DNA of 34,684 nucleotides. Origin: an uncultured Bacteroidota bacterium (GTDB lineage Bacteria; Bacteroidota; Bacteroidia; Bacteroidales; P3). Location: the NCBI GenBank assembly GCA_902790215.1, contig CADAQX010000025.1, forward strand, positions 1-34,684. The letters are read 5' to 3'. The notes below the pieces were generated by a model. That model ran no database searches, was not told where the DNA came from, and saw only the letters and a list, made by a program, of their open reading frames with translations. The stretch's first letter is position 1, and every line of letters starts with the position of its first letter. Below are positions 4,531 to 27,574 of the stretch, piece by piece. A program made the position numbers and the translations under genes.

Positions 4531-4664
4531 TTGAGAGTTGAAAGTTGAAAATTGAAATATTGCTTGAATGCTTGAATGTGTAAGTGCTTGAGTGCTGACG
4601 CGGTCAAATCACTCAAACAATCAAGCAATCAGACAATCAAGCAATCATATTTCAACTTTCAATT
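4531..4664. repeat. nested palindrome between convergent genes (families A and B)
   Basis: The left arm runs TTGAGAGTTGAAAGTTGAAA-type units (4531-4560) and then TGCTTGAATG-type units. The right arm carries their complements in reverse order (CAATCAAGCAATC units, then TTTCAACTTTCAATT to 4664). The centre, at about 4594-4609, is GCTGACGCGGTCAAAT, also found in elements at 20357 and 22044. It begins two bases after the hydrolase stop and runs through the stop of the dihydrofolate reductase gene, so it fills the whole convergent gap. It may act as a bidirectional terminator. Confidence 0.8.
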
Positions 4665-5188
4665 CTATAGTACTCTGCATAGGCGTATTCCAGGCCGGTT
4701 TCGGGGTCGGTCATGCGGTCGGTCTGACTCACTTGGCGGAACGCCGAGCGGTCGATGACGGGGAAAAATACATCCGCCTCGAAATCCTTATAGACCCAGG
4801 TCACATACAGCCTGTTCACCAACGGGAGGAAGTCGCGGTAGATAGTGCCGCCGCCCATGATAAAGGTTTCCTCCTCCCCTTCCACCATGCGCAGCACCTC
4901 CGTCATGCTGTGTGCTACCTCCAGCGTGCCCGTTGCCGTCTCCGGCACTTCATAGCGGAACCCCTCGTCGTGCGTCAGCACGATGTTGCGACGCTTGGGC
5001 AGGGGCTTCTTGGGCAAGGAGTCGAACGTGCGCCGTCCCATAATGACGGTGTGGCCGCTTGTGAGGGACTTAAACCGTTTCAGGTCGTCGCTGAGATGCC
5101 ACAGCAAATCGTTGTCGCGGCCGATAGCCATATTCTGCGCCACCGCCACAATGATGGAAAGGTTGTATTTGGGTCTAATATCAATCAT
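4652..5188 (-). CDS. folA: dihydrofolate reductase
   Basis: A 178-residue cytosolic enzyme that reduces dihydrofolate to tetrahydrofolate with NADPH for thymidylate, purine and methionine synthesis. Family marks are visible: NLSIIVAVAQNMAIGRDNDL at the N-terminus, LLWHLSDDLKRFK with the catalytic acidic residue in SDDL, the NADPH-binding GHTVIMGRRTFDSLP, and FIMGGGTIYRDFLP. Length is slightly above the usual 160-170. The last residues (IES) and the stop codon lie in the intergenic palindrome at 4531-4664. It lies downstream of hydF on the same strand, separated by a 90-base gap that holds another palindrome, so co-transcription is uncertain. Confidence 0.96.
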   Translation of the reverse strand: MIDIRPKYNLSIIVAVAQNMAIGRDNDLLWHLSDDLKRFKSLTSGHTVIMGRRTFDSLPKKPLPKRRNIVLTHDEGFRYEVPETATGTLEVAHSMTEVLRMVEGEEETFIMGGGTIYRDFLPLVNRLYVTWVYKDFEADVFFPVIDRSAFRQVSQTDRMTDPETGLEYAYAEYYRIES

Positions 5189-5205
5189 AATTAATTCGTT
5201 AAGTA

Positions 5206-5286
5206 AATTGAAAAGTGAAAAGTGAAAAAGGCTGGCGCACCACTTGTCAACATTTTTTCAATTTTCAATTTTCAATTTTCAATTTC
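5206..5286. repeat. family A palindrome between hydF and dihydrofolate reductase genes
   Basis: The left arm has TTGAAAAGTGAAAAGTG-type units (about 5206-5230) and the right arm four TTTTCAATTTTCAATT-type units (about 5252-5286). The centre is GGCTGGCGCACCACTTGTCA, which shares GCTGGCGCA with the family B centre at 20357. The right arm ends at the hydF stop codon (5279-5281). Confidence 0.75.
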
Positions 5287-6478
5287 TAAAAATTCTCATT
5301 GAGCGTTCAAAGATGCCGTTCATGTAGGCGATGGCCAGGCCGTAGTTGCTGACAGGCACCCCAGCCTCGATGGCCGGAGCCAGACGCGAAGCCAGCTGTT
5401 TGGCCGTCACCACGCAGCCGCCGCACTGAATCACCAGCGCATAGCTGCCCAGGTCGTGCGGCAGAGCCGAAAGCCCCGCCACTGCCTCGCAGTGCAGCTG
5501 CTTGCCCGTATATTTGGCCAACAATTTAGGCAACTTCACCCTTCCGATATCCTCGCAGGTGACGTTGTGCGTGCAGCTCTCCAGCATCAGCACCCGGTCG
5601 CCGTCCTGCAGGCGGTCAATCGCGGGCGTGCCCTTCACATACTCAGCAAACAACCCCTTGGCACGTGCCAGCACCACACTGAACGACGTGAGAAAGACCT
5701 CGTCCGTCACAATCTTCGCCACCATACCATACACCTGGCTGTCCGTCACCACCACCCGGGGCTTTTCCTTCAGACCTGCCAGCGTGCCCTCCAGCTCCGT
5801 CTCGCGGCACACCACAGCGCGGGCGTGGTTGTCCAACACATCGCGCAGCACCTGCACCTGTGGCAGAATCATGCGTCCCTCGGGAGCCGACGAGTCGATG
5901 GGCGTAACCATCACCACCGTGTCGCCCTCGCCGATTACATCGCCCAGCAGCGAGCGGTGCACGTAAGCCGTCTCGGGCAGCGCCTCGCGGATGCGGGCAG
6001 TGAGGGGTTCGCGCAGCGCGACGTCCTTCACCGTCAGCACGAAAATCTTCGTGTCATAGTCGGCCTCAATACGCTCAAGCAAATCGGGGTCGGGCTTCAG
6101 GCGGTCGGCCTGCGAATAGATAAGCACGTATGGGATACCGCGCTTGCGGCACGTGTCCACCAGCATCACCTCCTCCGCCTCAAAGCGATTGTCCGTAAAA
6201 AGAATCAATGCAAGGTCGGCCTGAGCCAGCATTTCAAGGCTCTTGTCGATGCGCATGCGACCCACAGTGCCCTCGTCGTCGATGCCCGCGGTGTCAATCC
6301 ACACCACAGGCCCCACGCCGCCAATCTCCATCGTCTTCTTCACCGGGTCGGTGGTAGTGCCCGCCATGTCCGACACAATGGCAATCTGCTGACCCGTGAG
6401 GAAATTCACCAAGGAGCTCTTGCCGTAGTTGCGCCGGCCGAAAATACCTATATGGGGTTTCAATTCGTTTCCTTTCAT
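5279..6478 (-). CDS. hydF: [FeFe]-hydrogenase H-cluster maturation GTPase HydF
   Basis: A 399-residue GTPase that scaffolds assembly of the 2Fe subcluster and delivers it to [FeFe]-hydrogenase. The N-terminal G domain has the P-loop GRRNYGKS (residues 14-21), a TT pair in AGTTTDP and the switch motif DTAG. A dimerisation region follows, then a C-terminal cluster domain with Cys302-x-His304 (ESCTHNVTC) and Cys352-x-x-Cys355 (QCGGC). The residue before CxxC, often His in this family, is Gln here. The frame is open to an ATG at 6496; the ATG at 6478 gives the family-like start just before the G domain. Neither hydE, hydG nor a hydrogenase lies in this window. Confidence 0.95.
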   Translation of the reverse strand: MKGNELKPHIGIFGRRNYGKSSLVNFLTGQQIAIVSDMAGTTTDPVKKTMEIGGVGPVVWIDTAGIDDEGTVGRMRIDKSLEMLAQADLALILFTDNRFEAEEVMLVDTCRKRGIPYVLIYSQADRLKPDPDLLERIEADYDTKIFVLTVKDVALREPLTARIREALPETAYVHRSLLGDVIGEGDTVVMVTPIDSSAPEGRMILPQVQVLRDVLDNHARAVVCRETELEGTLAGLKEKPRVVVTDSQVYGMVAKIVTDEVFLTSFSVVLARAKGLFAEYVKGTPAIDRLQDGDRVLMLESCTHNVTCEDIGRVKLPKLLAKYTGKQLHCEAVAGLSALPHDLGSYALVIQCGGCVVTAKQLASRLAPAIEAGVPVSNYGLAIAYMNGIFERSMRIFRN

Positions 6479-6513
6479 GCCCCAATAACGCAACACAGCC
6501 CAGAATATTGTCT

Positions 6514-6600
6514 GAAAAGTTGAGAGTTGAAAGTTGAAAGTTGAAAATTATCCGGGTGCGGCAGCTAACTCTCAACTCTCAACTTTCAACTTTCAACTAA
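6514..6600. repeat. family A palindrome upstream of the sigma-factor gene
   Basis: The left arm is GTTGAGAGTTGAAAGTTGAA-type (6519-6545), the right arm AACTCTCAACTCTCAACTTT-type (6567-6598). The non-repetitive centre at 6546-6565 recurs exactly, in reverse complement, at 13954-13973. It lies between divergent hydF and the sigma-factor operon. Confidence 0.8.
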
Positions 6601-6641
6601 AAAATTTCCGTCCAGGTGTAATAAACTGCACCCTCTGCACG

Positions 6642-6649
6642 TATATTGT
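6642..6649 (+). promoter_or_regulatory. weak candidate promoter box for the sigma-factor operon
   Basis: TATATTGT approximates TAnnTTTG with one mismatch (G for T at the seventh position is shifted) and lies 31 bases before the ATG at 6681. A weak match would fit an operon read by its own sigma factor rather than the housekeeping one, but this is inference. Confidence 0.35.
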
Positions 6650-6680
6650 GCAAAAAGAACAACGGGAAAAGAAACGGCCG

Positions 6681-7154
6681 ATGAATCCGAAAGAGTACAA
6701 CACCATAGTCGACAAATACAGCGACGACCTATATCGCTTCGCCCTGCGCTACACAGGCGATAAGGACGACAGCAACGACGCCGTGCAGGACTGCTTCGTC
6801 AAGCTATGGGAACACCACGAACAGGTTCATGCCGACAAAGTCAAAGGCTACCTGATGCGGGTACTCTACCGCCTGCTGGTTGACCGCTACCGGCGACGAA
6901 AGCGCCTGGTTGGCGAGAGGCTGATTCCCGAAGAAGCCTGCAACCCGCACAACGACTACGAGCTGCACGACAGCATAGAGAAGATGCTGGCCACACTGAC
7001 CGGAGAGCAACGGATGCTGTTGCTGCTGCGCGACCTCGAAGGCTATTCCTACAAAGAAATGGCCGTCATGACCGGACTGAACGAGCAACAAGTAATGACC
7101 TACCTCTACCGAGCAAGGGTGAAAGCAAGGAAATACCTGACAGAAAACAGATAA
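6681..7154 (+). CDS. ECF-type RNA polymerase sigma factor
   Basis: A 157-residue sigma-70 family protein with only regions 2 and 4. Region 2 spans about residues 5-70 (YSDDLYRFALRYTGDKDDSNDAVQDCFVKLW, with the core-binding and -10 recognition helices); region 4 spans about 98-152 (LTGEQRMLLLLRDLEGYSYKEMAVMTGL, a helix-turn-helix). It is short for the Bacteroides ECF group. The frame is open upstream to 6534, but that start lies inside the intergenic palindrome, so the ATG at 6681 is chosen. It heads a five-gene unit in which the next gene looks like its membrane anti-sigma factor, so it probably controls the downstream envelope proteins. Confidence 0.92.
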   Translation: MNPKEYNTIVDKYSDDLYRFALRYTGDKDDSNDAVQDCFVKLWEHHEQVHADKVKGYLMRVLYRLLVDRYRRRKRLVGERLIPEEACNPHNDYELHDSIEKMLATLTGEQRMLLLLRDLEGYSYKEMAVMTGLNEQQVMTYLYRARVKARKYLTENR

Positions 7155-7179
7155 CAACACTATAACACCGAAAAGCAAT

Positions 7180-7851
7180 ATGATTACCAAGGATAATTAC
7201 GAAGCCATGCTGCTGCAATACCACGAGGGGTTGCTGGACGCCCGGCAACGGGCGGAGGTGGAGGCGTTTCTGCAACAGCATCCCGACATCGAACAGGAAT
7301 ACCGCCTATATTACAGCAATGAGCCGATTGTTACGCCGCCCGATGCCCGCTACATGCACAAAAGGTCTATAAAACAGCGGCCCGTCCGCGCTATCGCCTG
7401 GCAGCATTGGGCAGCGGCAGCCTGTATTGCAGTGCTTTTCGCCACTGCCGTCTGGCTGTGGAGTCCGTCGCAACCTGGAAGCAACACCACCCCATCGACA
7501 ATTCATGTGGCCTCCGCCGAACCAGCAACGGCCGTTGCCACCGCCGACAGCAGCACACCAGCCGTAGACCCCCGCATGCCGGAGTACTCCGCCGCGGTAA
7601 GAGAACGCCACACCGCAGTCGCATCCGTTGCCGCAGAGCCTGAGACCATACAGGCCGATGCGACACCAGTAGAACACTTTGTGGCCGCTGCATCGGAGCA
7701 AACGCCCGTATGCGAGAGCGACAAACTGGTGGTGTACGGTTGCCGCGTGGAGAACAGGCAGGATCTGGTTGCCACCCCCGACGTGCTTGGACCCTGCAAC
7801 AGTCTGGCTTGCCGCCTGATTGCCACAGGACAAAAAATAGGAATGCTTTAA
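7180..7851 (+). CDS. probable membrane-bound anti-sigma factor
   Basis: A 223-residue protein with a short cytosolic N-terminal region (NYEAMLLQYHEGLLDARQRA then FLQQHPDIEQEY), a layout seen in anti-sigma factors of Bacteroidota. One transmembrane helix follows (about 76-94, AAAACIAVLFATAVWLW). The rest is a low-complexity Ala/Thr/Pro-rich periplasmic region with four cysteines near the C-terminus (residues about 170-215) that could form disulfides. There is no zinc-binding HxxxCxxC motif and no FecR domain. It starts 25 bases after the sigma factor and 16 before the next gene. The anti-sigma role is inferred from position and topology. Confidence 0.75.
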   Translation: MITKDNYEAMLLQYHEGLLDARQRAEVEAFLQQHPDIEQEYRLYYSNEPIVTPPDARYMHKRSIKQRPVRAIAWQHWAAAACIAVLFATAVWLWSPSQPGSNTTPSTIHVASAEPATAVATADSSTPAVDPRMPEYSAAVRERHTAVASVAAEPETIQADATPVEHFVAAASEQTPVCESDKLVVYGCRVENRQDLVATPDVLGPCNSLACRLIATGQKIGML

Positions 7852-7867
7852 ACAACAAATACGCTAT

Positions 7868-8749
7868 ATGAAGAAGATATTGAACATCGTTATCACCTGT
7901 TTGGTTGTGGCTGGGTGCGGGAAAGCATATTTAGAACCGCCTGAGCCGGAATTAAATATTGTGTGGGCTCCCGATGCGACAGCGGCACAACGGGAGTCGA
8001 TACGCAAAATGGCGGAGGACCTCGTGCAGGTGGAGGGCGGCACCTACTACATGGGGGTGCAGCACACCTTCCCCGCCTCGCCGGGATTTGACTCCACCAC
8101 ATGGTATGAGCAGACCCCTGTGCACCTTGTCACCCTCAGTGCCTTTAAAATAGGACGCTATGAGATAAGCCGCAAGCAGTGGTACGACATCATGGGCGAC
8201 GGTACCGGAATGGACGGACACTACACCATCGAGACCGCCGACCTGCCCATAGAAGGCATGATGCGCGTTGAAGTCGATACCTTTCTGGCTCGCATCAAAC
8301 ACCTCTCCGGCCTGTGTTTCCGTCTGCCCACCGAGTCAGAATGGGAATATGCCGCCCGTGGTGGCCGCAACGGCTCGACGAGCAACCGTTTCAGCGGCGC
8401 GTACTATTCGGACGAGGTGGCCTGGAGCTACTACAACAGCGGCGGACAGCTGCATCCCGTGGGACAACTGAAAGCGAACAACCTGGGTCTGTACGACATG
8501 AGCGGGAATGTGGCGGAACTATGCAGCGACATCTACGCACCCTACCCAGCCGAAACCCAATTCGACCCGCAGGGACCGTCACACTGGGAAAACGACCTGA
8601 TGGCTGTGCGCGGAGGGCATTACATGTCCAACGACCAGCACTGCCGGGTGTATTACCGCAGCTACGCCTCTGCCGACTACCCGATGACCTATGTCGGCCT
8701 GCGGCTGGTCTATATTCCCAAAAAAGAACATCATTCAACAACGAAATAA
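7868..8749 (+). CDS. FGE-sulfatase (SUMF1)-domain lipoprotein
   Basis: A 293-residue lipoprotein. The signal peptide ends in a lipobox (VVAGC, Cys17). The rest is a formylglycine-generating-enzyme-like domain: VEGGTYYMGV at about residue 56, FKIGRYEISRKQWYDIMG, CFRLPTESEWEYAARGG, NNLGLYDMSGNVAELCSD and a C-terminal RGGHY...YVGLRLVY. Bacteroidota have many such proteins; most are not sulfatase activators. I do not see the paired active-site cysteines of true FGE in the expected region, so a structural or binding role is likelier. It is the third gene of the sigma-factor unit, 11 bases before the next gene. Confidence 0.9.
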   Translation: MKKILNIVITCLVVAGCGKAYLEPPEPELNIVWAPDATAAQRESIRKMAEDLVQVEGGTYYMGVQHTFPASPGFDSTTWYEQTPVHLVTLSAFKIGRYEISRKQWYDIMGDGTGMDGHYTIETADLPIEGMMRVEVDTFLARIKHLSGLCFRLPTESEWEYAARGGRNGSTSNRFSGAYYSDEVAWSYYNSGGQLHPVGQLKANNLGLYDMSGNVAELCSDIYAPYPAETQFDPQGPSHWENDLMAVRGGHYMSNDQHCRVYYRSYASADYPMTYVGLRLVYIPKKEHHSTTK

Positions 8750-8760
8750 TTACCCCTGAT

Positions 8761-9822: not shown

Positions 9823-9850
9823 AAGAACCTATCTAAACTGAAATATTATC

Positions 9851-11458: not shown

Positions 11459-11510
11459 GAATCCTGAACCCCCACCGAAACCCAATGACAAATCACTCAA
11501 GCGTCGTCAT

Positions 11511-11595
11511 TTATTCGATCGTTATTCGATCGTTTTCCACTCTTTTTCCGTTTCAGAAAGGGAAAACGATGGGAAACATATCGAAAAACGATATG
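11511..11595. repeat. tandem 11-mer followed by two hairpins
   Basis: TTATTCGATCG occurs twice head to tail (11511-11521 and 11522-11532). ATCGTTTTCC (11529-11538) pairs perfectly with GGAAAACGAT (11561-11570), with an inner CTTT/AAAG pair. CATATCG (11577-11583) pairs with CGATATG (11589-11595) around five A residues. None is followed by a T run on the plus strand, so a standard terminator is not supported. Confidence 0.8.
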
Positions 11596-11765
11596 ATAAA
11601 GAACGACGCAACATCGAGCCATGAAGGCTCACAGAGGAACGTTGGGGACAAATATGCGACACTATCGGAACGCTGACGAAAGGTGACGTAAGGTGTCGTA
11701 ATCCCTCACAGAATAAAAAGTAAATTACGCGCGAAGCGGCAGAAAGCAAAGTAAGAGTTAAGCAA

Positions 11766-11835
11766 TAAGAACCAGGATTGTATGCCACAGTTCCTGGTTC
11801 TTAGTTCTTACCTTTAAACCCAAATTGGGTTTAAA
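11766..11835. repeat. 12-bp hairpin and 23-base palindrome after the LRR gene
   Basis: TAAGAACCAGGA (11766-11777) pairs perfectly with TCCTGGTTCTTA (11792-11803) around a 14-base loop; this is the family E unit also used at 12612-12683. It is followed by a 23-base palindrome (11813-11835) with 11-base arms TTTAAACCCAA and TTGGGTTTAAA. Either could end transcription from the sigma-factor unit. Confidence 0.8.
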
Positions 11836-11893
11836 AACGGAAACAAATTGAATAATTTAGGGTGCAATTGAACGCCATGAGAATTATTATTTG

Positions 11894-11901
11894 TATATTT
11901 G
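11894..11901 (+). promoter_or_regulatory. Bacteroidota -7 promoter box for the glutathione peroxidase gene
   Basis: TATATTTG matches TAnnTTTG. It lies 61 bases before the ATG at 11963, leaving a leader that contains the palindrome at 11914-11930. An upstream TTG is 23 bases away, a little long. Confidence 0.65.
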
Positions 11902-11913
11902 CAATTGACAATG

Positions 11914-11930: not shown

Positions 11931-11962
11931 TAATTTTATAATTATCAACAAAATAATATCAG

Positions 11963-12619
11963 ATGAAGGCTTTTAAATTATTAGGCGTTTGCCTGACAGC
12001 CGCGCTGCTGCTGTGGTCCTGCAACCAGAAAGCCGCCGAACCGGCCGAGATGGCCAACCTCGACAACATCTATCAGTTCTGCGTGGTGAACGGGTCGGGC
12101 GACACGGTGTCGCTTTCCGACTATCAGGGAAAGGTGCTGCTGGTGGTTAACACCGCCACCCAATGCGGTTTTACGCCCCAGTACGCCGAATTGCAGGCTC
12201 TTTATGCCACTTACCACGACCGCGGACTGGAAATCCTCGATTTCCCCTGCAACCAGTTTGGGGAGCAGGCTCCCGGCACCATTGAGGAAATCCACGCGTT
12301 CTGCACGGGCACCTACGGCACCACTTTCCCGCAGATGGCCAAGGTGGAGGTGAACGGCGAGAACGCCATACCCCTATACTCCTGGCTGAAAAGCAAGGCG
12401 GGATTTGGCGGTTTCGACACCACCGACCCGCGCGGTGCCTACCTCCACGCCGCTTTCAAGGCGCAGGACAGCCTGTATGACCAGAACCCCGACATCAAGT
12501 GGAATTTTACCAAGTTCCTTATCGACCGCGAGGGCAATGTGGTTTGCCGCTTCGAGCCCACCACACCCGGTGCCGCCATCGTCGAGGCAGTGGAGATACA
12601 GATAAGAGATAAGAGATAA
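11963..12619 (+). CDS. glutathione peroxidase-family thiol peroxidase, lipoprotein
   Basis: A 218-residue peroxidase carrying a lipoprotein signal (LLWSC, lipidated Cys20), so it works on the outside of the inner membrane or at the outer membrane. The catalytic Cys68 is in NTATQCGFTPQY; Cys96 in FPCNQFG is placed like the resolving cysteine of thioredoxin-dependent members; WNFTKFLIDR carries the Trp/Asn of the catalytic tetrad. It uses Cys, not selenocysteine. It probably reduces organic or hydrogen peroxide using a thioredoxin-like donor (inference). The last residues RDKR and the stop lie in the first bases of a family E inverted repeat, so the C-terminus may have been altered by it. Confidence 0.93.
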   Translation: MKAFKLLGVCLTAALLLWSCNQKAAEPAEMANLDNIYQFCVVNGSGDTVSLSDYQGKVLLVVNTATQCGFTPQYAELQALYATYHDRGLEILDFPCNQFGEQAPGTIEEIHAFCTGTYGTTFPQMAKVEVNGENAIPLYSWLKSKAGFGGFDTTDPRGAYLHAAFKAQDSLYDQNPDIKWNFTKFLIDREGNVVCRFEPTTPGAAIVEAVEIQIRDKR

Positions 12620-12683
12620 GAAGTAAGAACTAAGATTTGTCTGCCTCGCCATTCGTAGCTCTCAGTTCTTAGTTCTTATCTCT
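12612..12683. repeat. family E inverted repeat at the glutathione peroxidase 3' end
   Basis: The 24-base left arm at 12612-12635 and right arm at 12660-12683 pair at 22 of 24 positions, built of TAAGAAC-type units. The left arm overlaps the last codons and stop of the glutathione peroxidase gene (stop at 12617-12619). This is a strong candidate for an mRNA 3' hairpin. Confidence 0.85.
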
Positions 12684-12691
12684 AATAATGT

Positions 12692-12750
12692 GTTAGTCCT
12701 TGGCGCATCAAAGACTCACGAATTAACGAATTAACAAATTAACTCATTTC
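12692..12750. repeat. family C repeat upstream of the GNAT-HD gene
   Basis: Bases 12697-12735 match 25744-25782 at 37 of 39 positions, and 12692-12727 match the reverse complement of 17712-17747 at 33 of 36. The core has AGTC/GACT arms around CTTGGCGCATCAAA, followed by AATTAACG-type tandem units. Confidence 0.85.
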
Positions 12751-12753: not shown

Positions 12754-13899
12754 ATGGAATCTGTTCTTAATAATGACGGCGGTGCGGCGTTGGCAGTGCG
12801 GCCCGCCGTCATGAATGATATACCGCGCATTCTGCAGCTGGTGGACCACTCGCGGAGCATCATGCGGGCCAACGGCAACTTCGTGCAGTGGGACGGATAC
12901 CCCGGCAGCGACCTGATAGGAAGCGACATAGACCGGGGCATCGGGCATGTCGTTGTGGCCGATGGTCAGGCTGTGGGCTATTTCGCCCTGCTGCTTGACC
13001 CCGAGCCCACCTACGCCTATATCGAGGACGGGCTGTGGTTAGACGACACCACACCCTACGGCACCATCCATCGGTTGGCCTGTGCACCGGGAGTGCACGG
13101 AATTGCCCGCTGCGCCTTTGCGTGGAGCGAGAGCCGCTGCGCCTCTATCCGGGTGGACACCCACAAGAACAACCACATCATGCTGCATATCATAGAGAAG
13201 TTTGGCTACAGCCGCTGCGGCGTGGTGTATATGCGCGACGGCACACCGAGGGAGGCATTCCAAAAGATGATGTACCCCATGGTGACGGCCTCGCTGCGAC
13301 AGTATGTGGAGCAGGAGATTCTGCCACGGTACAACCACTTCGACAGAGCACACCGGTTAGACCATATCTACACCGTCATGGCACAGAGCATGGAGCTGGC
13401 TGGTCACTACCCCGAGCTGAACCGCGACATGGTCTATACCATCGCCGCCTACCACGACACCGGTGTGGTGGAGGGACGCGAGCGGCACCATCTGGTTTCG
13501 GGCCGCATTATCAGGGAGGATGCCCGGCTGCGTGAGTGGTTCAGTCCAGAGCAGATAGAGACCATGGCCCAGGCAGCAGAAGACCACCGTGCTTCGGCCG
13601 ACATAGAACCGAGAAGCATGTATGGCCGCATCGTGGCCGAGGCCGACCGCGACATAGAGCCTATAAATATTGTCCGCAGGACTGTGCAGTTCGGGCTTTC
13701 GCATTTTCCCGAGCTGGACAAGGAAGGCCATTGGCAGCGCACGTTGCAGCACCTGCACGAGAAGTACGCCGAAGGGGGCTACCTGAAACTGTTTATCCCC
13801 TGCTCGCGCAACGGGGTACAACTGCAGAAGCTTCGCGCCCTGATAGCCGACGAAACCCGTCTGCGACAAGTCTTTGAAAAGTTGAAAATTGAAAATTGA
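12754..13899 (+). CDS. fusion of GNAT acetyltransferase-like and HD phosphohydrolase-like domains
   Basis: A 381-residue cytosolic protein with two parts. Residues about 14-178 look like a GNAT N-acetyltransferase: VRPAVMNDIPRILQLV at the start, GQAVGYFALL in the middle, and HRLACAPGVHGIARCAFAW in the acetyl-CoA-binding region, followed by VDTHKNNHIMLHIIEKFGY. Residues about 185-375 look like an HD hydrolase: His204, the His234-Asp235 pair in AAYHDTGV, a following RERHH, and His279 in EDHRA. The substrate of neither part can be told. The last residues (KLKIEN) and the stop come from TTGAAAATTGAAA-type repeat units. A family C repeat lies just upstream; no clear promoter box was found. Confidence 0.85.
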   Translation: MESVLNNDGGAALAVRPAVMNDIPRILQLVDHSRSIMRANGNFVQWDGYPGSDLIGSDIDRGIGHVVVADGQAVGYFALLLDPEPTYAYIEDGLWLDDTTPYGTIHRLACAPGVHGIARCAFAWSESRCASIRVDTHKNNHIMLHIIEKFGYSRCGVVYMRDGTPREAFQKMMYPMVTASLRQYVEQEILPRYNHFDRAHRLDHIYTVMAQSMELAGHYPELNRDMVYTIAAYHDTGVVEGRERHHLVSGRIIREDARLREWFSPEQIETMAQAAEDHRASADIEPRSMYGRIVAEADRDIEPINIVRRTVQFGLSHFPELDKEGHWQRTLQHLHEKYAEGGYLKLFIPCSRNGVQLQKLRALIADETRLRQVFEKLKIEN

Positions 13900-14087
13900 A
13901 AATTGAAAATTGAAATATTGCTTGAATGCTTGACGAATTGAAAATTGAAAGTTGCTGCCGCACCCGGATAATTCTCAATTTTGAATTTCGAATTTCGAAT
14001 TTGAGACTCTAAACTCTCAACTCTAAACTCTCAACTCTCAACTTTCAACTCTCAACTTTTAAGCAATCAAACAATCAAGCAATAAAA
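13874..14087. repeat. compound family A/B repeat between the GNAT-HD and DUF456 genes
   Basis: Five TTGAAAATTGAAA-type units (13880-13912) run into TGCTTGAATG units, then more family A units, then a centre at 13954-13973 identical in reverse complement to 6546-6565. The right side has TCGAATT units and a long CAACTCTCAACTCTAAACTC-type run (about 14005-14057), then AAGCAATCAAACAATC units. It fills the whole 193-base gap, starts inside the GNAT-HD gene and leaves only a few bases before the next ATG. Confidence 0.8.
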
Positions 14088-15039: not shown

Positions 15040-15178
15040 AATGTTTTGTTGATATGTTGATACGTTGATATGTTTTGTGTTGATATGTTGCGAACCGTAT
15101 AACTTATCAACTTATCAACGGACAACGATAAATCATAAACTTATCAACTTATCAACGGCCAACGATAAATAACTTTCA
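15040..15178. repeat. family D palindrome between apt and the lipoprotein gene
   Basis: GTTGATATG/GTTGATACG units (about 15048-15088) pair with AACTTATCAAC units (about 15101-15118 and 15139-15156) around a centre GCGAACCGTATAA (15090-15102). The centre and arms recur at 27490-27572. AACGATAAAT appears twice (near 15124 and 15161) and again near 22100. The left end of the element lies close to the lipoprotein start at 14999; the right end touches the apt stop. Confidence 0.8.
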
Positions 15179-15815: not shown

Positions 15816-15904
15816 TATTGATTGCTTGATTGCTTGAATGTTTGATTGTTTGAGTATTATTCACTCAAGCATTAACACAATCAAGCATTCAAGCATTCAT
15901 TCAG
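15816..15904. repeat. family B palindrome at the HD hydrolase 3' end
   Basis: TGATTGCTTGATTGCTTGAA-type units on the left pair with CAATCAAGCATTCAAGCATT-type units on the right around GAGTATTATTCACTC, itself palindromic. The right arm runs through the stop of the HD hydrolase gene. Confidence 0.8.
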
Positions 15905-17673: not shown

Positions 17674-17696
17674 AACAAATCATTTTTTAGAATTCG

Positions 17697-17780
17697 TTAA
17701 TACGTTAATGTGTTAATTCGTTAGTCTTTGATGCACTAAGGACTAACACATTAACGCATTCACACATTAACACATTCTTT
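17697..17780. repeat. family C repeat between alkaline phosphatase and atoE
   Basis: GTTAATTCGTTAGTC (17712-17726) pairs with GACTAACACATTAAC (17741-17755) around TTTGATGCACTAAG. Bases 17712-17747 are the inverted form of the family C core at 12692-12727. ACATTAACGCATTCACACAT-type units extend it to the alkaline phosphatase 3' end. Confidence 0.85.
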
Positions 17781-20245: not shown

Positions 20246-20257
20246 ATCTGAAAAATT

Positions 20258-20412
20258 ATAATGTGTTAATTATTGCTTGAATGCTTGAGTTATTGCTTGA
20301 ATGCTTGAATGTGCTAATGCTTGAGTCATAGCTTGAATGTGTAAATGTTTGAGTGGGCTGGCGCAGTCAAATTACTCAAACAATCAAGCATTCAAACAAT
20401 CAAGCATTCATG
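20258..20412. repeat. long family B palindrome between upp and uraA
   Basis: Six or more TTGCTTGAATG-type units on the left (about 20272-20350) and four ATCAAGCATTCAAACA-type units on the right (about 20375-20412). The centre GCTGGCGCAGTCAAAT (20357-20372) matches 4594-4609 and, inverted, 22044-22059. The stretch of 34 bases from 20357 differs from that at 4594 at only three positions. It separates two genes that would be expected to be co-transcribed. Confidence 0.85.
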
Positions 20413-20416
20413 AATG

Positions 20417-21040: not shown

Positions 21041-21103
21041 AATCTTGTATTTTAAATTATTATCTATTTTGAGTCTAAACATACCCCCCACAAAAGGGCA
21101 TTG

Positions 21104-21134
21104 CAAAGATACAGGAAATCCCCCAATTCACAAA
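21104..21134 (-). promoter_or_regulatory. consensus Bacteroidota promoter for upp
   Basis: On the minus strand TTTG (21134-21131), a 19-base spacer and TATCTTTG (21111-21104) match the Bacteroidota -33/-7 consensus exactly. Transcription should begin close to 21100, giving a leader of about 60 bases. Confidence 0.85.
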
Positions 21135-21221
21135 ATATTTAACATTATTACTTATCAACATCATGTTCACAATGACCCTCGCAAAACAAATTCTCAGCCT
21201 ACCCCAAAGGAAATACCGTTG

Positions 21222-21965: not shown

Positions 21966-21987
21966 GGGGTTTTGTCTATATGTGAGA

Positions 21988-22125
21988 AATTGCTTGAATG
22001 TGTAATTGTTTGAATTATTGCTTGAATGTGTAATTGGTTAGTTATTTGACTGCACCAGCTAATCAGACAATCAAGCAATCATAAACTTATCAACGGGCAA
22101 CGATAAATCTTCATCTTATCAACGA
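21988..22125. repeat. compound family B and D repeat upstream of the lipoprotein gene
   Basis: TTGCTTGAATGTGTAATTG units (from 21988) and ATCAGACAATCAAGCAATC (about 22061-22080) flank the inverted family B centre at 22044-22059. These are followed by family D AACTTATCAAC and AACGATAAAT units to 22125. The right end supplies the stop codon of the GH89 gene. Confidence 0.8.
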
Positions 22126-24842
22126 AAAAGGAGCGGCAGAATCTCACGTTCAAACAGGTCGCGGCGAACGATGCGATAATGGGGTGCGTAGGCATCCTTG
22201 AAACGTTGGCTGTGGTGGCAGTCAACTTCGCCGGAGTTGAGCATACCCTCTATTGCCGCCTCGTCCTCTTCAAACCGATGCGGACGGATGGACTGGTCAA
22301 AGCCTCGCAGTGCCACCTTTATCCGCTCCCACTGTCCGCGCCAGTCATACAGCGGCATCTTCTTCGCCTGCCGTGCGCTCTCCATCATCAGCCGCACAAG
22401 GTGTCCCACTTCCACCTTTCCCGCTTTCAACACCCGCAGGTTCACCCTCACATAGTTGCCCTCCACACCTGTATATTCATAATCCGGAAACCGGTGGTCG
22501 CCCGTGTCCGAATACTGCAATTCTTGCTCGACATACTGTGCACATTGCGCCGAGTCCTTGATGATATGCCCCGGCCCGTACACATCTTGGAAGCAGCTCT
22601 TATACACATCCCTCAACTGCGCCTCGGGGAACCGCCGCATATAGGCACCCATCACATCGGCCACACGGTTGGGCACGTCGTATTGTCCTTTGTCGATTTT
22701 CCGCATGATGTACTTTGCCACTTTCACGGTGCCGTCGCTCCGCCCTTCGGCAATCACCCACCGGGATCCCTGTGTCCATTGATGTTCAAACTCCGAGAGT
22801 TTTTCGCCAAAGGCTTTTTCGTCGAAACGGCTTCCAGTTGCCAAGGTTGAATCCACCGCATCGAAAAACAGACTCCACCGCGTGCGGTAGTAGTCCTTCA
22901 GCAGCCAAGCCCACATGCGGTTGGCGTAGTCGTTCAGCACAGGACCACCCCACACGGTGAGCAGTGTGCGCGCCTGCGTCTCGTAGTATATCTGCTCACG
23001 CTCTCCCCTGCCCCACGCATGGGCCTGTTTTGCCCACTCGTAGAAGTCAAAAGGCTTCACTGTGCGTAGCAGCATGTCGGCATCGTCAATCAACTCAAGA
23101 GCCAAAGCAGCATAGCGATGCATCAAAGCGGTATCCCCCCTGCGGTAGGCGGCGGTGTAGGCATCGCGAACCTCCATAAAATGGTTGCCCAACCATTGCG
23201 ACAGCAAATTGGCCACATCGTACTGGTATGCCGACCGCTTCGACGGCGACTGCATCATCAGCCGCACAGCCCTCAGCAGCGTGCCGTTGTCGTAAGAATA
23301 ATAGGGCTTGGTGTAATAGGTGCCGTGACCCGAAAGTGAAGGCCGCGCCACCATCTGGGTGCCAAGACCATAGAACGACCAGTCTTTATAGACCGAATCC
23401 ACCAGCAGCCGCCACGCCTCGCGGCAGCCTTCGTCCTCCTTGCCATAGCGCAAGTCGGCCCAGCGGCGGGTGAATGCCGACACCCTCTGGGCTGAATCGT
23501 CCAACCCCCACGGATGCTCCAACAATAGTTCGAAAATCTGCGGACTGTTGTCGAAACTCTCCAGCGTGGAGCCCACACCCATCATGTTGCCTCCTTGTTC
23601 GCTATAGGCTGCGTCCAACTTGTTGCTCAGCACGTTCAAGTCGCCCACCAACATGGTGTTTCCTCCGAAATTGCCAAGATAGCACCAGATAAAGGGCTGG
23701 CCGAAGAAACCCTCGGTCTCGCGCCACACCTCAGTCTTCTCGCAGAAGTAGTCGAGCAGCACCATCCTGCCCTGCGGCACAGCGGTGAGATAGGCCCGCA
23801 ACCTCTCAGGTGTCCACTGCTTGCGCTTGTAGTAGAACACCCACGACATCTGCAGCCATCGCGCCGCCGAATCCACCTGCTGCAGCGAGGCATAGATATT
23901 CTCCGACACCGAGGCCAAGTACTCGGGCTCCCAGCTGGGCGGATCCATCTCGTTGAAAGGGTCCACCCCATAGATGTGGTCGGTGCCGTACAGCGCGGTC
24001 TGCTTGGCAAGATACAGCCGCTGAATGACTGCAAACAGGCTGTCGGTGGAATTCATAAAACAGGTAGGTTCAAAGCCGCACCAGCTGCTCAGCTGCTTGA
24101 TGTCGGCCTGGGGGTAACGCTCGGCAATCTGCTTCGGCACATGTCCGGCAAAAGCCGGCAGCACCGGGGTCATGCCCAAGGCACGTTCCCGTGCCAATAT
24201 CTTCTTCTGTAAATTACGCTGCCCGTCAATCCACCTTTGCGGCAAGGGTCCGCCAAATCCGTCCAGATTGGCCATACGGTGCCAGGGAAGGTGCGCCGGA
24301 CCGCTGAAATAGGCGCGTATTTCGTCGTCGGTCATGCCCAGCTCGCGCCACACCTCCTGCCACACGGCCTCCTGTCCCGTCAGCGCCAGCGGCATATTCA
24401 CTCCGTTGAGGGCCATCCAGTCGATAAACCGTTCCCACTCTTTCCATTGCCACCACACCATCGTATAGCCGTAGGTGCAGTAATTGAGAAAGAACCTTAC
24501 CGGCACCTTGCAGCGGTGAGTCACTGGCTCCGTCATCTTGGGCATCCGCCGAGGCAGCTCCACAGGCTGGCTGGCATACCACGAAACATGCACGTGGGCA
24601 TACTCTTTCAAGTAGTAGTTCAGCCCCATGCACATAGCATTGTCGTTGCTGCCCTCGATGCGTATTTTCCCGCCATTCTGACTGAGGGTGAACACATCGC
24701 CGCTGTCCTTTGTCAGAACAAACTCAAACGCCGAGGCTTTGTCGCCCAGAATACGCTGCGCCAATCCTCGCGCGGCACGCTGTGCCTGGCCGACAGTAAC
24801 TACGGCACACAGCAGCACCCCTATCACGAAACATTTCTTCAT
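22119..24842 (-). CDS. GH89 alpha-N-acetylglucosaminidase with C-terminal extra domain
   Basis: A 907-residue secreted glycosidase (signal peptide to about residue 20). The NAGLU/GH89 part spans about 25-715: N-terminal small domain, then the TIM barrel with FLNYCTYGYTMVWW, NGVNMPLALTGQEAVW, the likely acid/base Glu298 in DPFNEMDPP and nucleophile Glu428 in GSTLESFDNSPQ, and an all-helical C-terminal domain. It should release terminal alpha-linked GlcNAc, for example from mucin O-glycans or heparan-type chains. Residues about 725-907 (FQDVYGPGHIIKD, EGNYVRVNLRVL, APHYRIVRRDLFEREILPLL) are a further module beyond the usual GH89 length that I cannot name. The final Arg and stop (CGT TGA) are part of a family D unit. 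Confidence 0.95.
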   Translation of the reverse strand: MKKCFVIGVLLCAVVTVGQAQRAARGLAQRILGDKASAFEFVLTKDSGDVFTLSQNGGKIRIEGSNDNAMCMGLNYYLKEYAHVHVSWYASQPVELPRRMPKMTEPVTHRCKVPVRFFLNYCTYGYTMVWWQWKEWERFIDWMALNGVNMPLALTGQEAVWQEVWRELGMTDDEIRAYFSGPAHLPWHRMANLDGFGGPLPQRWIDGQRNLQKKILARERALGMTPVLPAFAGHVPKQIAERYPQADIKQLSSWCGFEPTCFMNSTDSLFAVIQRLYLAKQTALYGTDHIYGVDPFNEMDPPSWEPEYLASVSENIYASLQQVDSAARWLQMSWVFYYKRKQWTPERLRAYLTAVPQGRMVLLDYFCEKTEVWRETEGFFGQPFIWCYLGNFGGNTMLVGDLNVLSNKLDAAYSEQGGNMMGVGSTLESFDNSPQIFELLLEHPWGLDDSAQRVSAFTRRWADLRYGKEDEGCREAWRLLVDSVYKDWSFYGLGTQMVARPSLSGHGTYYTKPYYSYDNGTLLRAVRLMMQSPSKRSAYQYDVANLLSQWLGNHFMEVRDAYTAAYRRGDTALMHRYAALALELIDDADMLLRTVKPFDFYEWAKQAHAWGRGEREQIYYETQARTLLTVWGGPVLNDYANRMWAWLLKDYYRTRWSLFFDAVDSTLATGSRFDEKAFGEKLSEFEHQWTQGSRWVIAEGRSDGTVKVAKYIMRKIDKGQYDVPNRVADVMGAYMRRFPEAQLRDVYKSCFQDVYGPGHIIKDSAQCAQYVEQELQYSDTGDHRFPDYEYTGVEGNYVRVNLRVLKAGKVEVGHLVRLMMESARQAKKMPLYDWRGQWERIKVALRGFDQSIRPHRFEEDEAAIEGMLNSGEVDCHHSQRFKDAYAPHYRIVRRDLFEREILPLLFR

Positions 24843-24920
24843 ACCCGCCTGTATTTTTATTAAAATGATTTATAAAATTTAAGACTACAATTGCAAGCAA
24901 TTAATAGAGCGCGCCATTAC

Positions 24921-25673
24921 TCACACCACCGCGCGGGTGCGCCGCACCACAAGGATGCTGACCTCGTAGAGGGCATAGATGGGCAACGCCACCAGCGAGA
25001 GGGTGACGGCATCGCCCGTGGGCGTGATAATGGCGGCAATGATAAGCACCACCACCACTGCATGGCGGCGGTAGCGCGTCATAAACTGCGCCTTGAGCAT
25101 ACCCATCTTGGCCAGCAGCCACGAGAGCACAGGCAGTTCAAAAACCACCCCCAACAGGAAACACAGCATCAGGAGTATGTCGATATAAGAGGTGAGGGCA
25201 ATCTGGTTGGGCACATCGGGACTGACCTGATAGGTGCCGAGAAAGCGGAACGTGAGGGGGAAGATGAGGAAGTAGTTCAACGCCACGCCTGCAAGGAACA
25301 TGATGTAGCCGCACCCCACAGCCCGGACAGCATGGCGGCGCTCATGGGCATACAGCCCGGGAGCGACAAAATGGAACAGCACATACAGCACATAGGGAGA
25401 TACTATTAGCAACCCCGCCCAGAGAGCCACACGCATGTGGACGATGAACTGCTGCGCCAGCTCGGGATTGAAGAGACTGATATGGAAGTCTGTGCCGACA
25501 CCCGCAATGCGCTTGAAGAGCTGATAGGTAATAAAGTCTGGCCGCGACGGCGCCATAACGGCGGTAAAGAGCCAGTCCTTGCAGCAAAAGGCTGCCACCG
25601 CACCCACGGCCACCGCCGCCAATGCCTTGAGCAGACTGCCGCGCAGCTCGTCGAGATGTCCCCAGAAATCCAC
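24921..25673 (-). CDS. tatC: Sec-independent (twin-arginine) translocase subunit TatC
   Basis: A 250-residue inner-membrane protein with six membrane helices, the receptor for folded proteins with twin-arginine signals. Conserved features are MDFWGHLDELRGSLLKALAA at the N-terminus, the ALWAGLLIVSPYVLYVLFHFVAPGLY segment, a cytosolic HERRHA loop, the Glu in LGVVFELPVLSWLLAKMG, and IITPTGDAVTLSLVALPIYALYE near the end. It is on the same strand as tatA and a Tat-exported reductase but separated from tatA by a 142-base gap holding compound repeats. Confidence 0.96.
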   Translation of the reverse strand: MDFWGHLDELRGSLLKALAAVAVGAVAAFCCKDWLFTAVMAPSRPDFITYQLFKRIAGVGTDFHISLFNPELAQQFIVHMRVALWAGLLIVSPYVLYVLFHFVAPGLYAHERRHAVRAVGCGYIMFLAGVALNYFLIFPLTFRFLGTYQVSPDVPNQIALTSYIDILLMLCFLLGVVFELPVLSWLLAKMGMLKAQFMTRYRRHAVVVVLIIAAIITPTGDAVTLSLVALPIYALYEVSILVVRRTRAVV

Positions 25674-25677
25674 TTTA

Positions 25678-25797
25678 ATTTGAGAATTGAAAATTGATAA
25701 TTGAGAATGCTTGATTGCTTGAATGAATGTGTTAATGTGCGAATCCTTGGTGCATCAAAGACTCACGAATTTACGAATTAACACATTAACGCAGTCA
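25678..25797. repeat. compound family A, B and C repeat between tatA and tatC
   Basis: Contains family A units (TTGAGAATTGAAAATTGATA near 25678), family B units (TGCTTGATTGCTTGAATGAA near 25708) and the family C core (25744-25782, matching 12697-12735 at 37 of 39 positions), then ACATTAACG units. Confidence 0.8.
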
Positions 25798-25815
25798 CTC
25801 GATTTTCCAATATCC

Positions 25816-26022
25816 TCAAATTCCATCTTCACTCTTTTTCTTTTCAGATGATTCTCTCTCTTGGGGCTTGGGGTCTTCGATGCCATTCATGCCGTCCTTG
25901 AAACTCTTCACGCCTTTGCCCATGCCGCGCATGAGCTCGGGGATTTTCTTGCCACCGAAAAGCAGCAGCACCACCAGCACAATGACGATGATTTCCCATG
26001 TACCTAAGAACAACAGTTTCAT
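25816..26022 (-). CDS. tatA: twin-arginine translocase subunit TatA
   Basis: A 68-residue protein with one N-terminal membrane helix (about residues 6-23, TWEIIVIVLVVLLLF), the FGGKKIPELMRGMGKG amphipathic-helix motif and a charged disordered tail. It forms the variable pore of the Tat pathway. It lies 7 bases after the Fe-S aldo/keto reductase gene, which has a twin-arginine signal, an arrangement suggesting that the reductase is a dedicated or major substrate. No tatB is visible, as usual in Bacteroidota. Confidence 0.96.
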   Translation of the reverse strand: MKLLFLGTWEIIVIVLVVLLLFGGKKIPELMRGMGKGVKSFKDGMNGIEDPKPQERESSEKKKSEDGI

Positions 26023-26029
26023 AAAGCGA

Positions 26030-27466
26030 TTATTTGTTTGAAATGTTGGTAATGTAGTTTTCTATGGCGGCGAGTTTTACAGGGATGTTGATACCCTGCG
26101 GGCACTCGTGGAGGCACCGCCCGCAGCCGATGCAGTGGTCGGCTTGGCGCTCGCGGGCCAGTTCACGGCCGTAGCTGACGAGATAGGCGCGGCGGGCTTT
26201 GCGATAGGCGCGCTGCTCCTCGCTGGTGGCGTCGTCGCCGGGAGCGTCGAGCAGGTGACCTTCGTTGACCATGCGGTTGTAGTGGGCAAAGTTGCCGGGA
26301 ATGTCGATACCGTAGGGACAGGGCATACAATACTGACAACCCGTGCAGGGCACCAGCGGAAACTCTACATAGCGGTCGGCGATGGAACGTAGCATGGACA
26401 TCTCCTCCTCGGTGAGGGGGTTGAGCGGCGACATCGTGCGCAGGTTGTCCTGCAGATGCTCCATATAGGTCATGCCGCTGAGCACCGTGAGGATGCGCGG
26501 CATGCTGCCCGCAAAGCGGAATGCCCATGAGGCAAGACTGCTCTCGGGCGCACGGCGTTTGAACTCGTCAACGGCAAACTGCGGCAGGTTGGCCAGCTGT
26601 CCGCCCAGCAGGGGCTCCATAACGAAGACGGGAATATCGCGCTTAGCCAGTTCGCCGTAGAGGTATTCGGAATTGGCGTCCCCGTTGCCGTCGGGCGACA
26701 GGGAGGCAGCGTGCTGCCAGTTGATGTAGTTGTGCTGGATGAGGACATGATCCCAATGCACTTTCTCGTGCATGGCCAGCGCTTCGTCGAATACATTCAC
26801 GTCGCCGTGATAGGAGAACCCCAGGTTGCGGATGCGGCCTTTGCTGCGCTGCTCCATGAGGTATTCTATCATGCCGTTATCGACAAAACGGCGCATGAAG
26901 GCATCGTGGGGCGAGACGGGATTGCCGTCTTTGTCGCGTCCAGGCAGACCCACGCAGTGGAGCATATAGAAGTCGAGATAATCGACCTGTAGCCGTTCAA
27001 GGGACTGCTGGAACATCTCAATGCTACCCTGTCGGTTCCAGAGGGATGGGTTTTGGTTGGAGAGCTTGGTGCTGATGAGGTATTCCTCGCGGCGGTGACG
27101 GCTCAGGGCCTTGCCCATAGCTATCTCGGAGCGTGCCTTGCAGTAGCGCGGGGCTGTGTCGAAAAGGTTGAGACCATGGGCTATGGCATAGTCTGTAAGC
27201 TCGTTGATGCGGTCTTGGTCGAGGTCGCCCTCGGTTTGGTTGCCGTCCTTGCCGTCCTCGGTGGAGGGCAGGCGCATGCAGCCATAGCCGAGAAGAGACA
27301 CTTTCTCCCCGTGTGTGCCTGTGCGGTAGGTCATTTTGTCGGTAGGCACCTCTCCAGTGGAGAAACCTTCGGCTGTGGTTTGGTTGGGCGAATCACAGCC
27401 TGCGGCCAAGGCGGCAGTGGCGAGAGCTCCGGCTCCCATGCTTTTAAGAAATTCTCTGCGGTCCAT
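26030..27466 (-). CDS. Tat-exported aldo/keto reductase with C-terminal ferredoxin domain
   Basis: A 478-residue protein. The N-terminus is a twin-arginine signal (DRREFLKSMGAGALA, Arg3-Arg4) ending in LAAGC, so it may be a Tat lipoprotein (Cys24). An aldo/keto reductase domain follows (about 48-345): LGYGCMRLP, NLFDTAPRY with the Asp/Tyr pair, STKLSN with Lys and LHCVG with His. The C-terminal part (about 370-470) has two iron-sulfur motifs, CTGCQYCMPCPYG and CIGCGRCLHECPQG. It is an oxidoreductase acting outside the inner membrane; the substrate is unknown. It lies 7 bases before tatA. Confidence 0.93.
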   Translation of the reverse strand: MDRREFLKSMGAGALATAALAAGCDSPNQTTAEGFSTGEVPTDKMTYRTGTHGEKVSLLGYGCMRLPSTEDGKDGNQTEGDLDQDRINELTDYAIAHGLNLFDTAPRYCKARSEIAMGKALSRHRREEYLISTKLSNQNPSLWNRQGSIEMFQQSLERLQVDYLDFYMLHCVGLPGRDKDGNPVSPHDAFMRRFVDNGMIEYLMEQRSKGRIRNLGFSYHGDVNVFDEALAMHEKVHWDHVLIQHNYINWQHAASLSPDGNGDANSEYLYGELAKRDIPVFVMEPLLGGQLANLPQFAVDEFKRRAPESSLASWAFRFAGSMPRILTVLSGMTYMEHLQDNLRTMSPLNPLTEEEMSMLRSIADRYVEFPLVPCTGCQYCMPCPYGIDIPGNFAHYNRMVNEGHLLDAPGDDATSEEQRAYRKARRAYLVSYGRELARERQADHCIGCGRCLHECPQGINIPVKLAAIENYITNISNK

Positions 27467-27489
27467 TGTATAGCGTTTTTATTTTAATC

Positions 27490-27574
27490 TGTTTTGTGTT
27501 GATACGTTGATATGTTGATATGTTTTGTTGATATGATGCGAACCGTATAAACTTATCAACATATCAACATCTAA
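27490..27574. repeat. family D palindrome upstream of the Fe-S aldo/keto reductase gene
   Basis: GTTGATACG/GTTGATATG units (about 27498-27533) and ACTTATCAACATATCAAC units (27551-27568) flank the centre GCGAACCGTATAA at 27538-27550, the same centre as at 15090-15102. The right end touches the CPBP protease stop codon. Confidence 0.8.

What the first reader, a model, noticed from the sequence alone, without database searches (positions are those of the whole stretch)
4531..27574. Several families of intergenic palindromes whose arms are tandem short units around conserved centres
At least ten gaps hold imperfect palindromes with arms made of iterated 6-11 base units. Families seen: A (TTGAAA/TTGAGAG) at 4531, 5206, 6514, 13874, 25678; B (TGCTTGAATG) at 4560, 13920, 15816, 20258, 21988, 25708; C (TTAACG with a CATCAAAG core) at 12692, 17697, 25744; D (GTTGATATG) at 15040, 22081, 27490; E (TAAGAAC) at 11766, 12612. 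The arms could be slippage products, but each family keeps a distinct non-repetitive centre. They look like an organised multi-family 3'-end or mobile element system. Related simple repeats may be known in other Bacteroidota; I cannot check.
Basis: seen in the sequence. Interest (0 to 1): 0.8.

Follow-up and report, generated by a model that had tools for sequence, protein, structure and literature searches.

The report
Nested palindromes with tandem-repeat arms
The gaps between genes of this rumen bacterium are strewn with small mirror-image DNA repeats built from stacked 7-8 base words, sometimes nested inside one another and mostly just behind a gene's end; they look like a fast-changing, REP-like family of genomic hitchhikers in an unusual arrangement.

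Summary
In 799,684 bp of this rumen Bacteroidales genome (27%) I found 237 palindromes; one shuffle each gives 3 per 231 kb and 9 per 400 kb. 132 fall in families with tandem arms (period mostly 7 in A, E; 8 in B, C, D, G; 9 in H). Centres recur genome-wide: one exact 27-mer (B) 26 times, one 18-mer (D) 31 times, neither in 24 other genomes. Families nest concentrically more often than chance (14 vs 5.6 expected).

In same-direction gaps 75 of 83 elements are nearer the upstream stop than the next start. They are not enriched between convergent genes, sit in divergent gaps too, and one lies inside a dcw-like cluster, so a plain terminator role is unlikely. In 108 orthologous gaps of relatives, for 12 elements, none holds the same centre; some hold another family. 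No target-site duplication, no RAYT link, and little covariation between arms of one copy.

Best reading: REP-like dispersed palindromes, copied as palindromic units, landing in or beside older ones, tolerated behind stop codons. The copying mechanism is inferred. A shared centre motif (GGCTGNYGC) was strong in one set of relatives and did not replicate significantly in unseen genomes. New variant of a known kind.

The parts
4531..4662 (.). A(B) nested palindrome between a LysM-domain gene and folA (DHFR), centre gctgacgcggtcaaat
5205..5278 (.). A palindrome (variant centre ggctggcgcaccacttgtcaac) between hydF and folA; relatives carry C or D here
6518..6598 (.). A palindrome, centre atccgggtgcggcagc, in the divergent gap hydF / ECF sigma factor; five relatives hold a different palindrome here
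11501..11816 (.). F-E composite, a MITE-like repeat of about 320 bp; E palindrome at 11752-11816
12609..12686 (.). E palindrome; its arm holds the stop codon of the glutathione-peroxidase-like gene ending at 12619; relatives have short gaps without it
12688..12746 (.). C element with centre ccttggcgcatcaaagact, weak arms
13874..14083 (.). A(B(A)) nested element (nesting read by eye), centre ctgccgcacccggat; the 3' end of the HD-domain gene (stop at 13899) lies in the arm
15048..15156 (.). D palindrome, centre gttgcgaaccgtataac, followed by a second D right half
15819..15899 (.). B palindrome with short centre attattc
17689..17778 (.). C palindrome (reverse orientation), centre agtctttgatgcactaagg
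20258..20410 (.). B element, long left arm array, centre ggctggcgcagtcaaattactca (a match of the B centre pattern at 20351-20378)
21988..22123 (.). B element (centre in reverse) followed by a D right half
25678..25793 (.). A half-arm, B half-arm and C palindrome in series, between the - strand ORF 25816-26022 and tatC (24921-25673, - strand)
27490..27568 (.). D palindrome, centre gatgcgaaccgtataaac

Best explanation
These are non-autonomous, REP-like dispersed palindromes. SHOWN: each family is a set of copies of one palindromic unit (a centre flanked by inverted arrays of a 7- or 8-base word, median 65-84 bp in all), spread over gap types in proportion to noncoding bases, hugging upstream stop codons in same-direction gaps, concentric with arms of another family more often than chance, and turning over between related species. 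INFERRED: new copies are made by copying an existing palindrome, most likely when its single strand folds at a replication fork and synthesis switches template or a strand is rejoined, and they land in or next to older palindromes, whose halves remain as outer rings or half-arms. Copies that fall elsewhere are lost by selection; the space behind a stop codon tolerates them, perhaps helped by the stop codons in the first-met arm. The word arrays lengthen and shorten by slippage. In RNA they can form long hairpins, which may tune translation or decay as E. coli REPs are reported to do, but nothing here shows that this is why they persist.
For: Excess over shuffles in two samples. Lengths: medians A 83.5, B 82, C 82, D 73, E 64.5 bp among copies with short centres. 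Centres: B pattern (27 bases) 26 copies, D (18 bases) 31, A (13 bases) 38 in this genome, versus 0, 0 and 0-5 per genome in 24 others. Orthologous gaps: for 12 elements and 108 relative gaps a 16-base window at the element's middle is nowhere found with fewer than 4 mismatches (for the element at 13917 that window misses the A centre, which I checked by eye in the seven rows). Replacement read by eye in two gaps: at 5206 a C arm stub lies beside A here and beside D in L025, where four relatives have C; at 13874 a C right-arm stub lies in L024 and L025 where L026 has a C palindrome. Concentric families 14 of 132 against a permuted mean of 5.6, maximum 11 in 300. Stop adjacency 45 of 49 and 30 of 34. 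Gap types follow gap bases, p = 0.18. Arms of one copy match no better than arms of different copies when copies are chosen by centre alone in B, C, D, E, as expected if ready-made palindromes are copied.
Against: No enzyme was identified and no target-site duplication was found (132 elements). The same gaps are not clearly re-hit: 16 of 106 relative gaps with an own element against 12 of 110 without, so a preference for old palindromes rests on nesting and on examples only. The nesting count depends on word patterns that I chose. Arm matching in A is weakly above chance (125 of 5000 permutations reach it).
Confidence: 0.6

Rival explanations
1. They are transcription terminators or 3'-end protectors of the genes they follow, kept by selection; families swap because any strong hairpin will do.
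For: Median 6 and 10.5 nt from the upstream stop in same-direction gaps of the two samples. Strong RNA hairpins, z -2.9 to -9.5 in seven folds of six window elements. At C2:135189 an A element stands where relative G006 (neighbour proteins 81% and 99% identical) has, by eye, an ordinary GC hairpin with T run.
Against: No enrichment in convergent gaps (20 of 126 placed; gap bases predict 21) and 23 of 126 in divergent gaps. A D element lies 3 nt behind a mraY-like stop inside a dcw-like cluster. Wobble pairs do not favour the transcribed strand, 51 sense versus 60 antisense in the first sample. Ordinary terminators were found at 0 of 89 element-bearing ends versus 40 of 245 others, but the antisense control falls likewise, 0 of 89 versus 29 of 245, so this is uninformative.
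Confidence: 0.2
2. REP elements mobilised by the genome's own RAYT (Y1 tyrosine) transposases.
For: Own genome has two PF01797 matches above the cut-off.
Against: No A-D centre pattern within either fetched RAYT locus (L113, 2109 bp; L114, 3279 bp); a GC-rich palindrome lies upstream of the C8 gene instead. Relatives with A arms and no RAYT match: G006 82 A-arm matches, G008 46, G017 15, G014 6, G009 5; with RAYT and no A arms: G003, G005, G013, G018 (assemblies 72-97% complete). GT[AG]G is not enriched in the centres: 29 of 122, against 38-49 for three rearranged tetramers (a rough test).
Confidence: 0.08
3. MITEs of a classical DD(E/D) transposon with terminal inverted repeats.
For: The genome has MITE-like repeats (F-E composite) that carry an E palindrome; A copies have fairly constant ends (shared extent 33-39 nt in 10 of 19 copies on the left and 14 of 19 on the right).
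Against: Ends are ragged in B (5-70 nt left, 22-64 nt right, 20 copies); no duplication; in five loci with paired D centres (L176-L180) 15 ORFs were scanned and none matched a transposase family, three having no match at all.
Confidence: 0.12

Closest known systems
REP / REPIN / BIME elements with RAYT (TnpA-REP); passages of PMC12306157, PMC3733652 and PMC6006769 read
   Same: Many short extragenic palindromes, species-specific families, some close behind stop codons, foldable in RNA; REPs within 15 nt of a stop are said to stall ribosomes (PMC12306157).
   Different: Arms are arrays of 7-8 base words, AT-rich; families nest; GT[AG]G not enriched; no RAYT link found here.
TAACTGA heptamer repeats of Beggiatoaceae, cyanobacteria and some Bacteroidetes (PMC4679880, abstract and section 12 read)
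   Same: Intergenic heptamer arrays, also in Bacteroidetes, absent from matching gaps of some relatives.
   Different: Direct repeats (169 direct sets and one indirect in the main genome), mostly before start codons; no palindrome around a centre.
BrickBuilt MITE of Porphyromonas gingivalis (PMC4596501, abstract and part 1 of section 7 read)
   Same: Bacteroidales intergenic element combining tandem repeats with inverted ends.
   Different: 23-nt minisatellite between leader and tail with IS5-like TIRs, 19 copies; here the tandem array itself is the inverted arm and the unique part is in the middle.
Intrinsic terminators (survey PMC13155455, passages read)
   Same: Inverted repeat behind a stop codon.
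   Different: Bacterial inverted repeats in that survey peak 50-80 bp behind the stop and mostly have 4-5 bp spacers; here the arm starts within about 10 nt, centres are mostly longer, arms are AT-rich and copies also lie in divergent gaps.

Membership tests
REP (RAYT-associated) | Short extragenic palindrome in many copies per genome | tested here: met
REP (RAYT-associated) | Cognate RAYT gene flanked by the repeat | tested here: not met
   two RAYT matches, no A-D centre in the 2.1 and 3.3 kb fetched around them
REP (RAYT-associated) | GT[AG]G tetranucleotide at the foot of the stem | tested here: not met
   GT[AG]G in 29 of 122 centres, three rearranged tetramers in 38-49; exact position at the stem foot was not modelled
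MITE | Fixed terminal inverted repeats | tested here: inconclusive
   A extents cluster, B ragged; the D pattern in that call was faulty and gave 2 copies
MITE | Target-site duplication | tested here: not met
   direct repeats in the flanks no longer than with permuted flanks, 132 elements
MITE | Autonomous parent element | tested here: inconclusive
   none in five loci with paired D centres; the genome was not searched exhaustively
Intrinsic terminator | Enriched where transcripts must end (convergent gaps), absent from divergent gaps | tested here: not met
Intrinsic terminator | Causes RNA 3' ends | not testable with these tools
   needs Term-seq
Structured RNA family (Rfam) | Match to a curated family | tested here: not met
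   0 matches at gathering threshold in the window

The most novel reading that the evidence does not exclude
A lineage-wide class of palindromic repeats in which the centre is the replicating identity and the arms are exchangeable word arrays: centres of the type GGCTGNYGC are carried through many species inside arms made of unrelated words (TTGAAAG, TTGAATGC, TAAGAAC, TTAGGAA), and elements multiply by entering the centres of one another, without RAYT or DDE transposase.
Probability: 0.25. Interest if true: 0.78.

Novelty: new variant of a known kind. Interest (0 to 1): 0.55.

Why it matters
In the sampled 27% of this genome there is about one such element per four gene gaps (126 placed elements, 504 gaps), of a type for which Rfam gave no match in the window. 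If the reading is right, it offers a natural record of palindrome-into-palindrome replacement, a testable case for how extragenic palindromes spread without RAYTs, and a set of natural hairpins placed at stop codons in a rumen lineage.

Tried and rejected
1. Arm covariation within a copy: one search gave a strong signal for A and E, but the copies had been chosen for good pairing. With copies chosen by centre alone it vanished except weakly in A. Rejected.

2. RNA-level constraint through G-U wobble on the transcribed strand: 51 sense, 60 antisense, first sample only. Rejected.

3. Gaps as insertion hot spots: 16 of 106 relative gaps versus 12 of 110 (8 of 59 when the own gap is 40 bp or more). 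Not supported.

4. Replacement of terminators: sense scan and antisense control fall together. Uninformative.

5. Shared centre motif: in relatives fetched with HydF and by search, GGCTGNYGC sites are palindrome-centred (score 24 or more) in 10 of 173 ('near') and 7 of 191 ('far', HydF 77% or less) cases; none of 48 scrambled motifs reaches either rate (12 of 3699 and 10 of 4876 sites in all). These are not all independent or alike: two of the 10 are one GC palindrome (L141) seen on both strands, L072 and L074 carry the same element, and L073 (both strands, score 21) and one L084 hit are inverted pairs of the motif. The motif follows from A and B centres here, but I fixed it after seeing the list. 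In genomes not looked at before: 1 of 80 in the genus (scrambles 3 of 1991; one scramble did as well) and 0 of 30 in other families. Not confirmed. In this genome 15 of 176 sites are palindrome-centred; of 10 in same-direction gaps the motif is sense in 3, antisense in 7.

6. Polarity (G over C, stop codons in the first-met arm): 132 of 132 in families A-H, stops 1085 versus 255, but family assignment used polar words; opposite-polarity copies were sought by script only in the held-out half (1, with a long loop) and by eye in the first (2). In unassigned palindromes G exceeds C in 35 of 105 and stops run the other way, 139 versus 294; other species show opposite cases by eye. Kept as a description, not a law.

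7. Literature: searches (PMC open library only) listed no paper that I recognised as describing palindromes with tandem-word arms around a conserved centre in Bacteroidales; several returned mostly unrelated papers. Subscription papers and preprints were not searched.

8. The strict nesting script finds no triple nests; three are read by eye: C2:100258, C8:70930, C8:159149. It also lists 45 of 132 elements with an extra family on one side only.

9. Gene calls are my own ORF/codon script, not a published gene finder.
Full report
WHAT IS THERE. The window is contig C25 of a 2.98 Mb Bacteroidales genome. Its HydF is 94-97% identical to those of uncultured rumen isolates RGIG6559, RUG264, RGIG7974, UBA1208 and RUG360. 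I compared each position's left flank with the reverse complement of its right flank by local alignment. In the window plus C2:1-231000 and C5:1-134000 (399,684 bp) 126 palindromes score 26 or more; one block-wise first-order shuffle of C2 gives 3 where C2 has 78. A later sample, C1:1-200000 and C8:1-200000, gives 111 against 9. By arm words 73 of the 126 and 59 of the 111 fall in families: A TTGAAAG, B TGCTTGAA, C GTTAATGT, D GTTGATAT, E TAAGAAC, G AGGGTTTA, H GATAGA. The other 105 were not classified; by eye they include ordinary hairpins, inverted promoter-like pairs and a longer MITE-like repeat F. Periods are mostly 7 for A and E, 8 for B, C, D and G, 9 for H. Seven RNA folds of six window elements give z from -2.9 to -9.5.

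CENTRES. Patterns for the centres were searched in this genome and 24 relatives, 15 of them of the same genus. B (27 bases, three degenerate): 26 here, 0 elsewhere. D (18 bases, one degenerate): 31 here, 0 elsewhere. A (13 bases, degenerate): 38 here, 0 to 5 elsewhere. A relaxed D pattern finds three matches in L025, so D is shared with at least one near species. By contrast A arms occur in 14 of 19 genomes of the genus (own included) and in 1 of 12 genomes of other families. In L024 and L023 A arms surround a different centre.

POSITION. In same-direction gaps 45 of 49 elements, and 30 of 34 in the held-out sample, are nearer the upstream stop than the downstream start; median distances are 6 and 67 nt, then 10.5 and 68 nt. 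Of distances to flanking stops, 21 of 63 and 13 of 60 are zero or negative: the arm reaches into the gene end. At 12612 and 13874 the gene's last codons and stop lie in the element, and relatives have other C-termini. Yet over 126 placed elements (6 of 132 were not placed) the split is 83 same-direction, 23 divergent, 20 convergent, in line with gap bases (chi-square p = 0.18). On C9 a D element lies three bases behind the stop of a mraY-like gene (PF00953), before a 179-aa gene without a Pfam match, ftsW (named by reading), a murG-like gene and a Mur ligase. A strong terminator there would be costly. These points favour tolerance over a terminator role.

TURNOVER. For 12 elements I could compare the orthologous gap in relatives, 108 relative gaps in all; rows of at most seven relatives per element were read. 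None holds the own centre: the best match of a 16-base window at the element's middle has 4-7 mismatches (at 13917 that window misses the A centre, checked by eye in seven rows). Gap 5206: A here, C in L024, L026, L067 and L027, D with an A half-arm in L025, an A-like half-arm without palindrome in L023, nothing in L028. Gap 13874: A within B here, C in L026, D in L025, A with another centre in L024, none in L027, L028, L030 and L067. Gap 6514: A here, an ACGATACTTCA palindrome in L023, L024, L025, L026 and L067, none in L028. Gap C2:135189: A here, a GC hairpin with T run in G006. Half-arms of one family beside another (5206, 13874) read as remains of serial replacement. Against a hot-spot view, relatives carry an iterated palindrome in 16 of 106 gaps matching own elements and in 12 of 110 gaps without (that detector misses short ones).

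NESTING. With word patterns, 14 of 132 elements have two families in the same concentric order on both sides; permuting right sides within the innermost family gives a mean of 5.6 and at most 11 in 300. By eye C8:159149 reads E(B(D)), and C8:70930 and C2:100258 read A(B(D)).

HOW IT MAY WORK. Identical centres in dozens of places make independent slippage at each place very unlikely. Chosen by centre alone, copies do not show that left and right arms of one copy match better than those of different copies in B, C, D and E, and only weakly in A, so pairing is inherited with the copy, not mended copy by copy. No flanking duplication appears. RAYT genes exist but lack these centres in the few kb fetched; five relatives with A arms show no RAYT and four with RAYT show no A arms (incomplete assemblies). 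Fifteen ORFs beside paired D centres in five loci match no transposase family. I therefore infer copying of folded single strands or template switching between palindromes; quasipalindrome template switching is a known process (abstract start of PMC7202029 in the listing). The step itself is not shown.

WIDER VIEW. Palindromes with iterated arms (score 30 or more, both arms periodic) per 100 kb: 11.3 here (90 in 800 kb), 5.3 in HydF relatives at 83% or more (16 in 305 kb), 0 in 52 kb at 75-77%, 3.8 in those at 72% or less (36 in 956 kb), 3.1 in other stretches of genus members (12 in 392 kb) and 0.5 in other families (2 in 365 kb). These counts include some GC-rich and coding hits. Words differ from genome to genome. 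The centre GGCTGNYGC recurs within different arms in several of these genomes, far above scrambled motifs, but not significantly in the unseen set. I hold it as a lead.

COMPARISON. REP/REPIN elements are nearest in behaviour; they fail here on the RAYT link and, in a rough test, on the GT[AG]G tag. MITEs fail on duplication. Heptamer repeats of Beggiatoaceae and others are direct, not palindromic (PMC4679880, abstract and section 12). BrickBuilt has its tandem array in the middle and TIRs outside (PMC4596501, abstract and part 1 of section 7), the reverse arrangement. Hence: a new variant of dispersed extragenic palindromes, well supported as a pattern, weak in mechanism.

Noticed in passing
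window 11501-11816: F-E composite, a MITE-like repeat with many copies in the genome; in C2:8440 and C2:138200 its E right arm is replaced by a B palindrome.
   Followed up: partly
L114:2988-3199 and own C5:4536, C5:48734, C2:26263: Another MITE-like repeat with 22-27 bp inverted ends (TTTAACCCAAATCGGTCATTAGG) and, in C2:26263, its inner palindrome.
   Followed up: no
L180:5071-5610 (own C9): Behind a D element and before ftsW, where murD is usual, stands a 179-aa ORF without a Pfam match.
   Followed up: partly
L113:35-204 (own C8, upstream of the PF01797 gene): A GC-rich palindrome (with GGCCTTTCAGGCC) upstream of a RAYT gene, unlike families A-H.
   Followed up: partly
L218:14098-14280, L219:606-709, L222:9934-10042: Other genus members carry long near-perfect palindromes of 11-base words (TTTAAAGGGAC; TACGGTAGTAT).
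   Followed up: no
window 3451-3499 and C2:126342, C2:129600, C5:92127: Inverted pairs of a promoter-like end (TGCAAAGATAC...), recovered by the palindrome scan.
   Followed up: no
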